Shown one piece after another: positions 37,490-39,151 of a DNA stretch of 64,000 nt. A model generated the notes under the pieces. It had not been told where the DNA came from. It ran no database searches and was given only the letters and a program-made list of their open reading frames with translations. The stretch spans positions 34,816,575 to 34,880,574 of the forward strand of contig NC_049979.1 of NCBI RefSeq assembly GCF_000003815.2. The letters run 5' to 3'. A program made the position numbers and the translations under genes. Each line of letters begins with the position of its first letter. Positions within the stretch are counted from its first letter, which is position 1. This DNA comes from Branchiostoma floridae (Eukaryota > Chordata > Leptocardii > Amphioxiformes > Branchiostomatidae).

Positions 37490-39151
37490 ATGGCGGTCGG
37501 CTTGCTTCTGTTCGTCTGCCTGCTGTCCATCGACCATGCCTCTTCTCAGGTTGCCGGCACGGGTGAAGGGTGTTCCTGTGTGAGTGACGGACGATGTATC
37601 ACATCGGAGTGGGAATGTGACGGGTGGGATGATTGCGAAGACGGTTCCGACGAGCAGGACTGCTGGAGCGTAGAGTGCCCCTACTCCGACGACTTCAGGT
37701 TTTTATTTTATTTTATTTTTTTTATTGTATTTTCAATAAGTTACACACAGAACAAAGAAGAGCCTCCCTTTTAATAGAAAGCTATATGTCTAACAGCCAA
37801 ATTGTATACATTGTTACAGATCACCCCATATAAATATTATTATGTCATTATTCTCGTTATTCATTTTAGCTATCAAAGCATTACTTAGTATAATTTTATC
37901 ATCACATTGTAACACATTATGCAGAAAAGAAATCAAACCCTGTATGCAGAAAAGAATTCAAACCCAATAGCATTTATTTTAGATTAGAAGTATCACTAGT
38001 TGATGACTCCTATTTTACTTAATGTTCACTTTGTTATTGTATCATTATCATCGTACTTTCATACATGTATTTTTGCAATTAGCCTTCGGGCATGAGTTTG
38101 CAATAAAGATATCACATTATATCATAAGACCATATTAACATAATATTAAATCAGTGTATCCAGATAATATCATTTCATACATGGCACCTTTACATATAAG
38201 TATCATAACATGACTTCAGGTGTGTGAGTAGTGGAGCCTGTATTGATCCAAATTGGCGATGTGATGGGCAGGAGGATTGCGAAGACGGTTCAGATGAGCT
38301 CTGCTCGGGCGAAGACTGCCCCTACTCCGACGACTTCAAGTGTGCTAGTAGTGGAAGGTGCATCAATGGAGACTGGCAATGTGACGGGTATGAAGATTGC
38401 GAAGACGGCTCAGACGAAAATGACTGCTTGAGTATAGAGTGTGCCGAAAGGACGTGTAACAGTAGTGACGCCTGTTTCACTATGTGGGAGCAATGTGACG
38501 GCGTTGATAACTGCCCAGACGGCACAGATGAGGAGGACTGCTGGAGTATGGAGTGTTACCAGTTCAGGTGTAACAGCAGCGGAGCCTGTGTCAGTCGTAG
38601 CCGACAATGTGACAGTGCTCAGGATTGTCCCGATGGCTCGGACGAGGCTGACTGCTGGGACAGAATCCAAGAGTGCCCATATAACCACAATATGCGATGT
38701 GTGAGCAGCGGAGCGTGTATTTGGTGGTGGAAGGAATGTGACGGCGTTGACGATTGTCCGGACGGCTCTGACGAGGCGGGCTGCAAGAGCGACAACTGTT
38801 CCCGTTCCGGCTATATTAGGTGTGAGAGTAGTAGAGAATGCGTCACTGCATCGCGTCAATGTGACGGGTATGAAGACTGTGACGACGGATCCGATGAGAA
38901 AGACTGTTGGAGCCAAGAGTGCCCTGGGCCCGACGATTTCAGATGTGAAAGTAGCGGAGCCTGTATTCCTGTACAGTGGCTATGTAACGATAATGAAGCC
39001 TGTCCAGACGGTTCAGATGAGAAGTATTGCATAGCCGACACCTGTCCCCTGCCCAGTGTCTTCTGTGCACCTGATGGTCCCTGCCTCCCGGACACGAGGC
39101 GCTGCGATGGGGTCGGGGACTGTCCCGACGGGTCGGATGAAAGTGGCTGCG
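37490..39151 (+). CDS. Exons 1-2: signal peptide and nine LDL-A modules
   Basis: Exon 1 gives [20 protein letters not shown], a first LDL-A ([20 protein letters not shown]...) and the start of the second (CPYSDDFR). Exon 2 finishes the second and carries seven more in one open exon, each ending DCxDGSDE-type. Elsewhere in the gene each LDL-A has its own exon, so this exon probably grew by internal tandem duplication. Module 8 has NDNEAC in place of the usual CDG-DC segment, so its calcium site may be altered. Confidence 0.92.

What the first reader, a model, noticed from the sequence alone, without database searches (positions are those of the whole stretch)
37691..38221. Candidate recent intron gain in an LDL-A module, flanked by a 10-bp AG/GT-containing direct repeat
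GACTTCAGGT occurs exactly at both ends of intron 1 of gene 3. The left copy supplies the GT donor and the right copy the AG acceptor. Joining the exons gives the same DNA pattern as the uninterrupted third LDL-A module (CCCTACTCCGACGACTTC then a reading G/A-GTGT). None of the seven later LDL-A modules in exon 2 has an intron here. The intron has an A-rich tail on one strand and a retroelement-like 3' motif. Known models of intron birth by element insertion predict exactly this: a target duplication containing AGGT that splices out cleanly.
Basis: partly seen in the sequence, partly recalled or inferred. Interest (0 to 1): 0.88.

Follow-up and report, generated by a model that had tools for sequence, protein, structure and literature searches.

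The report
Intron born from a LINE insertion
A piece of a jumping gene (an L1-type LINE) landed inside a coding exon of an amphioxus LDL-receptor-like gene and duplicated ten bases whose two copies can serve as splice sites, a clean example of how a new intron can arise, although splicing itself was not tested.

Summary
GACTTCAGGT flanks a 521-bp, phase-2 GT-AG interval. The repeat alone is not remarkable: AGGT-bearing 10-mer pairs arise by chance in shuffled windows. What settles it is the content. Between the repeats lies the 5'-truncated, antisense 3' end of an L1-like LINE; longer relatives encode an endonuclease and a reverse transcriptase closest to L1 ORF2. The repeats abut both ends of the LINE copy. 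Five of 11 relatives show 9-14-bp target duplications; six are unresolved. A second repeat later inserted inside, with its own 8-bp duplication. All 16 paralogous loci compared are uninterrupted here, as is the sister module, so the intron is a gain. Removing it restores nine LDL-A modules with all 54 cysteines; reading through meets 10 stops. About 3-5% divergence since insertion makes chance survival of that frame unlikely, so it is probably spliced. Against this, the donor (CAG|GTTTTT) is weak, and no RNA or other Branchiostoma genome was available. It is not a serial intron-maker by the one pattern searched. A new, unusually precise member of a known kind.

The parts
37490..37698 (+). Exon 1: signal peptide, LDL-A module 1 and start of module 2; ends at phase 2 in ...GACTTCAG
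   Evidence: Translation; 37471-37577 is 86% identical to a paralog on contig C141
37691..37700 (+). Left copy of the 10-bp target-site duplication GACTTCAGGT; supplies donor CAG|GT
37699..38219 (+). Intron 1, 521 bp, GT-AG, phase 2 (splicing inferred)
37701..37920 (-). Antisense 3' end of an L1-like LINE (family A), beginning with its A-rich tail
   Evidence: 86-94% identical to the genome copies listed; alignments
37913..37920 (+). Left copy of the 8-bp duplication CACATTAT flanking the nested repeat
37921..38112 (+). Nested second repeat (family B): 3' end with AATAAAGAT tail, in the sense direction of the gene
   Evidence: Up to 98% identical to other genome copies; flanks compared
38113..38120 (+). 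Right copy of CACATTAT
38121..38211 (-). Remaining LINE family A sequence up to its 5' truncation point (...CATAACAT)
   Evidence: The copy on C191 (L027/L034) continues past this point while the window switches to GACTTCAGGT
38212..38221 (+). Right copy of GACTTCAGGT; supplies acceptor CAG|G
38220..39151 (+). Exon 2: rest of LDL-A module 2 and modules 3-9, uninterrupted; donor GTAAGT follows

Best explanation
A 5'-truncated copy of an L1-like LINE inserted by target-primed reverse transcription, antisense, into the second LDL-A module of what had been one long exon. It duplicated the ten target bases GACTTCAGGT. Because these contain AGGT, the left copy became a donor (CAG|GT) and the right copy an acceptor (CAG|G), so the spliceosome can remove the whole LINE plus one copy of the duplication and leave the protein unchanged. 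Later a second repeat inserted inside the LINE and lengthened the intron. Shown: the repeat, the LINE identity and its exact ends, the nested insertion, the uninterrupted paralogs, the restored frame. Inferred: the insertion mechanism (from tail, truncation and duplication) and that the intron is spliced in the animal.
For: Exact 10-bp repeat. Intron bases 10-230 and 420-525 match dispersed genome copies at 86-94% (40 of 442 candidates scored). Longer relatives carry ORF2 with Exo_endo_phos and RVT_1 (L032) or RVT_1 and zf-RVT (L035); the L035 frame matches L1 ORF2p at E 1.8e-52, next R2 at 1.8e-18. The LINE alignment ends at the repeats. 5 of 11 family copies examined have 9-14-bp flanking matches. 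16 of 16 loci supplied (of 17 non-self loci held; about 11 distinct places) have tblastn alignments crossing the site by 15 or more residues each side; all 8 loci checked run in one open frame on from a signal-peptide motif for at least 270 residues, 7 of them straight into LDL-A modules. Within 3 mismatches the empty site occurs once in the genome, as module 3 of the same gene. Frame: 380 codons open, 54 of 54 module cysteines kept; unspliced reading stops after 94 aa, with 10 stops before exon 2. Tip length of the intron copy 4.9%, or 11 private bases of 307, two in the tail; neutral simulation keeps frame and cysteines in 1 of 4,000 runs at 4.9% and 1.15% at 2.7%.
Against: Donor CAG|GTTTTT lacks a purine at +3, A at +4 and G at +5 and ranks 13 of 52 nearby GTs with a weight matrix recalled from memory; the best is the right-hand copy, CAG|GTGTGT. 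The acceptor has 9 pyrimidines in the 17 bases upstream. The nested repeat carries AATAAA in the sense direction at 38102, which could end transcripts early. No RNA evidence. If the insertion were only as old as the nested repeat's tip (0.6%), survival of the frame would say little (35% of runs). The simulation ignores indels and assumes 60% transitions. Paralog alignments contain gaps and repeated modules, so the aligned module is not always the strict counterpart.
Confidence: 0.78

Rival explanations
1. The LINE landed in the exon as described but is not spliced well: this is a disrupted (null or weakened) copy, and the intron exists only on paper.
For: Weak donor and modest pyrimidine content; read-through gives a truncated protein; many paralogs could cover its loss.
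Against: Nine intact modules, no stops and all module cysteines kept despite about 3-5% divergence of the inserted LINE; further LDL-A and F5/8C segments lie downstream.
Confidence: 0.18
2. An older intron already sat here and was later invaded by the LINE.
For: Introns often collect LINE copies (general knowledge).
Against: The duplication spans both exon edges and no intron sequence is left outside LINE, nested repeat and duplications; 16 of 16 paralogous loci supplied cross the site without an intron.
Confidence: 0.02
3. The LINE family is an introner that seeds introns repeatedly.
For: It makes target duplications and its antisense strand begins with a T-rich tail and is AT-rich.
Against: One match in the genome to AGGT plus the antisense tail (exact pattern only, so diverged copies could be missed); none of the five resolved duplications contains AGGT or its complement; about a dozen copies at 86% identity or more, a lower bound (40 of 48 candidates scored).
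Confidence: 0.02

Closest known systems
Doc1053 intron gain in Drosophila sechellia GM26034 (PMC3296678, passages read)
   Same: A retrotransposon inserted in an exon became an intron, with target duplications at or near its ends.
   Different: There one duplication lies 15 bases beyond the intron end and five amino acids were added; here the splice sites lie inside the duplication and no residue changes. Here a second repeat is nested inside.
Transposon-insertion model with AGGT target duplication (review PMC3443670, passages read)
   Same: Matches the idealised description: the AGGT-bearing target is duplicated and each copy gives one splice site.
   Different: A candidate natural instance with an identified L1-like LINE. 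The review's table lists Oryza, Drosophila, Oikopleura and Zea; amphioxus is not there, though Oikopleura is also a chordate.
Introners (PMC9860276, passages read)
   Same: A mobile element becomes an intron on insertion into an exon.
   Different: Introners are families with several introns, most consistent with DNA transposons according to that paper; this is a single event by a LINE.

Membership tests
Intron gain by transposon insertion | Interval is a mobile-element copy | tested here: met
Intron gain by transposon insertion | Target duplication flanks it and contains the splice sites | tested here: met
Intron gain by transposon insertion | Intron absent in relatives | tested here: met
   Paralogs only, 16 of 16 loci supplied and 8 of 8 open frames; no ortholog from another species was available
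Intron gain by transposon insertion | Spliced from the RNA | not testable with these tools
   No RNA data; frame conservation is indirect
L1-type LINE | Family members carry an APE-type endonuclease and an L1-like reverse transcriptase | tested here: met
   on longer relatives; the intron copy holds only the 3' non-coding end. The clade within L1/Tx1 was not resolved
L1-type LINE | A-rich 3' tail, 5' truncation, variable target duplications | tested here: met
   (5 of 11 copies resolved, 6 not)
Introner | At least four similar introns from one family (threshold in PMC9860276) | tested here: not met
   One match to the exact pattern; no other copy was shown to be an intron. Gene annotation was not available, so the test is partial

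The most novel reading that the evidence does not exclude
A precise intron birth by an L1-type LINE in amphioxus: one insertion supplied both splice sites through its target duplication, changed no amino acid, stayed in use under selection, and then tolerated further growth by a nested repeat.
Probability: 0.7. Interest if true: 0.62.

Novelty: new member of a known kind. Interest (0 to 1): 0.52.

Why it matters
Few recently gained introns have a known source, and clean animal cases with both splice sites inside the target duplication are scarce in what I could read. This locus shows the origin of donor, acceptor and body base by base, and its weak donor makes it a direct test of how poor a new intron's signals can be.

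Tried and rejected
Pre-existing intron invaded later, chance repeat and an active introner family were considered; reasons are in the rivals and the report. Tandem duplication does not fit because the interval is LINE sequence, not exon sequence. A Pfam scan of two family B upstream frames gave nothing, so calling family B a LINE would rest only on its tail, variable 5' truncation and a Cys/His-rich frame; I leave it as a repeat. The candidate ORF1 frame of family A matched no Pfam family above its cut-off. Target duplications could not be resolved for 6 of 11 family A copies; for L031 and L039 the start taken is not the true element end, because their flanks still match each other. The intron 2 donor score printed is offset by one base and is not used. 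The window-gene translations used the wrong frame; one search corrected it. Paper searches: searches returned no paper; some searches listed 10, 2, 15 (of 49), 2, 2 and 6 papers, none naming a LINE-born amphioxus intron in title or abstract start. One of them, an alpha-amylase study that includes B. floridae, reports no intron created by a transposable element in its data (PMC3096672, passages read).

Full report
What was checked. The 10-bp repeat is exact and sits where stated. The intron is 37699-38219, 521 bp, phase 2, 27% GC.

How surprising the repeat is alone. Pairs of identical AGGT-containing 10-mers 60-5000 bp apart average 9.5 in 30 Markov shuffles of the window, largest 15; the real window has 161, of which 154 lie in three clusters of evenly spaced copies and 7 elsewhere, this one included. 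The repeat by itself therefore proves nothing.

What lies between the repeats. The genome of the window (513,431,437 bases, 431 contigs) was searched with the interval. The size would fit Branchiostoma floridae; that is recalled, and the species was not tested. Bases 10-230 and 420-525 match one dispersed family (A) and about 250-435 another (B). Family A copies run on into an L1-like LINE: one copy's ORF2 has an endonuclease (Exo_endo_phos, E 9.9e-18) and a reverse transcriptase (RVT_1, E 5.4e-31), another has RVT_1 (E 7.9e-33) and zf-RVT (E 2.1e-8). The latter's best solved relatives are L1 ORF2p chains (E 1.8e-52), then R2 (E 1.8e-18). A candidate ORF1 lies upstream in L031, L033 and L039, but no Pfam family above its cut-off confirmed it.

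The ends. Aligned to other copies, the interval starts with the complement of the A-rich tail directly after the left GACTTCAGGT and follows the LINE to ...CATAACAT, where the copy on C191 continues TACTCG while the window switches to the right GACTTCAGGT. Of 11 other copies examined, 5 show an exact flanking match of 9-14 bp and 6 only 5-7 bp, that is unresolved. Some of the five overlap the A-rich tail, so their true lengths may be a few bases shorter.

The nested repeat. Family B interrupts the LINE at 37921-38112 with an 8-bp duplication CACATTAT. Its closest copies are 98% identical and its tip branch is 0.6%, so it came later.

Gain, not loss. Of 17 non-self loci held were aligned with the joined protein (L056, which matched only the leader, was left out); they are about 11 distinct places on contigs C3, C7, C11, C18, C141 and C262. 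All 16 have an alignment crossing the junction by at least 15 residues on each side. LDL-A modules repeat and the alignments have gaps, so some may involve a neighbouring module. therefore looked at 8 of these loci directly: all 8 have one open frame running on from a signal-peptide motif for at least 270 residues, 7 straight into LDL-A modules and one (L043) first through a low-complexity stretch. The other places listed were not opened. No empty allele was found: the only match within 3 mismatches is module 3 of the same gene. No ortholog from another species was available.

Age and use. A maximum-likelihood tree gives the intron copy a tip of 4.9%; counting bases found in none of the other aligned copies (L069 left out) gives 11 of 307, two of them in the tail and two in columns with only three other copies. 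If the exons had drifted freely since insertion, simulated sequences keep both an open frame and all 54 cysteines in 1 of 4,000 runs at 4.9%, 1.15% at 2.7%, 3.5% at 2% and 35% at 0.6% (substitutions only, 60% transitions assumed). This favours continued use of the spliced frame but depends on the age estimate.

Splice signals. The donor CAG|GTTTTT fits the consensus well only up to +2, because the LINE tail replaced the original +3 to +6; with a weight matrix recalled from memory it ranks 13 of 52 GTs between 37501 and 38360, while CAG|GTGTGT at the right copy ranks first. The 17 bases before the acceptor have 9 pyrimidines. New introns in Drosophila are reported to have weaker splice sites, backed up by nonsense-mediated decay (PMC2809761, abstract and outline only); the 10 in-frame stops here would fit that picture.

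Comparison with what is known. The model is described in PMC3443670 (passages): insertion into AGGT duplicates it and gives both splice sites. A Drosophila case with the retrotransposon Doc1053 exists, with five added residues (PMC3296678, passages). [quoted passage not shown] the words Branchiostoma, chordat- and amphioxus do not occur in its main text. PMC3488318 was seen in passages and names Branchiostoma once, in a species list. PMC3096672 (passages) found no transposon-made intron among amylase genes including those of B. floridae. My paper searches listed no LINE-born intron in amphioxus by title or abstract start, within an open-licence library only. Verdict: a new, unusually precise member of a known kind.

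Gene context. Downstream frames hold further LDL-A segments (two above the curated cut-off, one below) and F5/8 type C segments (one above, two below); 4 of the 10 frames scanned matched nothing.

Noticed in passing
39522-40306: Intron 2 of the same gene ends in a 46-bp tandem array of about 17 copies; GTTTGCACCAG, which forms the presumed acceptor, occurs 17 times, and once in the paralog locus L042. The array thus multiplies an acceptor-like site.
   Followed up: partly
37911-37960: A 25-bp near-duplicate (84% identical) spans the left edge of the nested repeat; by eye it is not in the other family B copies aligned.
   Followed up: no
45023-45500: Copies of a CAGGTAC-containing word spaced 115 bp apart overlap or adjoin an F5/8C-like segment.
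   Followed up: no
L066 (C3:33252900-33253600): A LINE family A copy with CTCTCATGCGCT some way off on both sides, possibly a duplication with extra transduced sequence.
   Followed up: no
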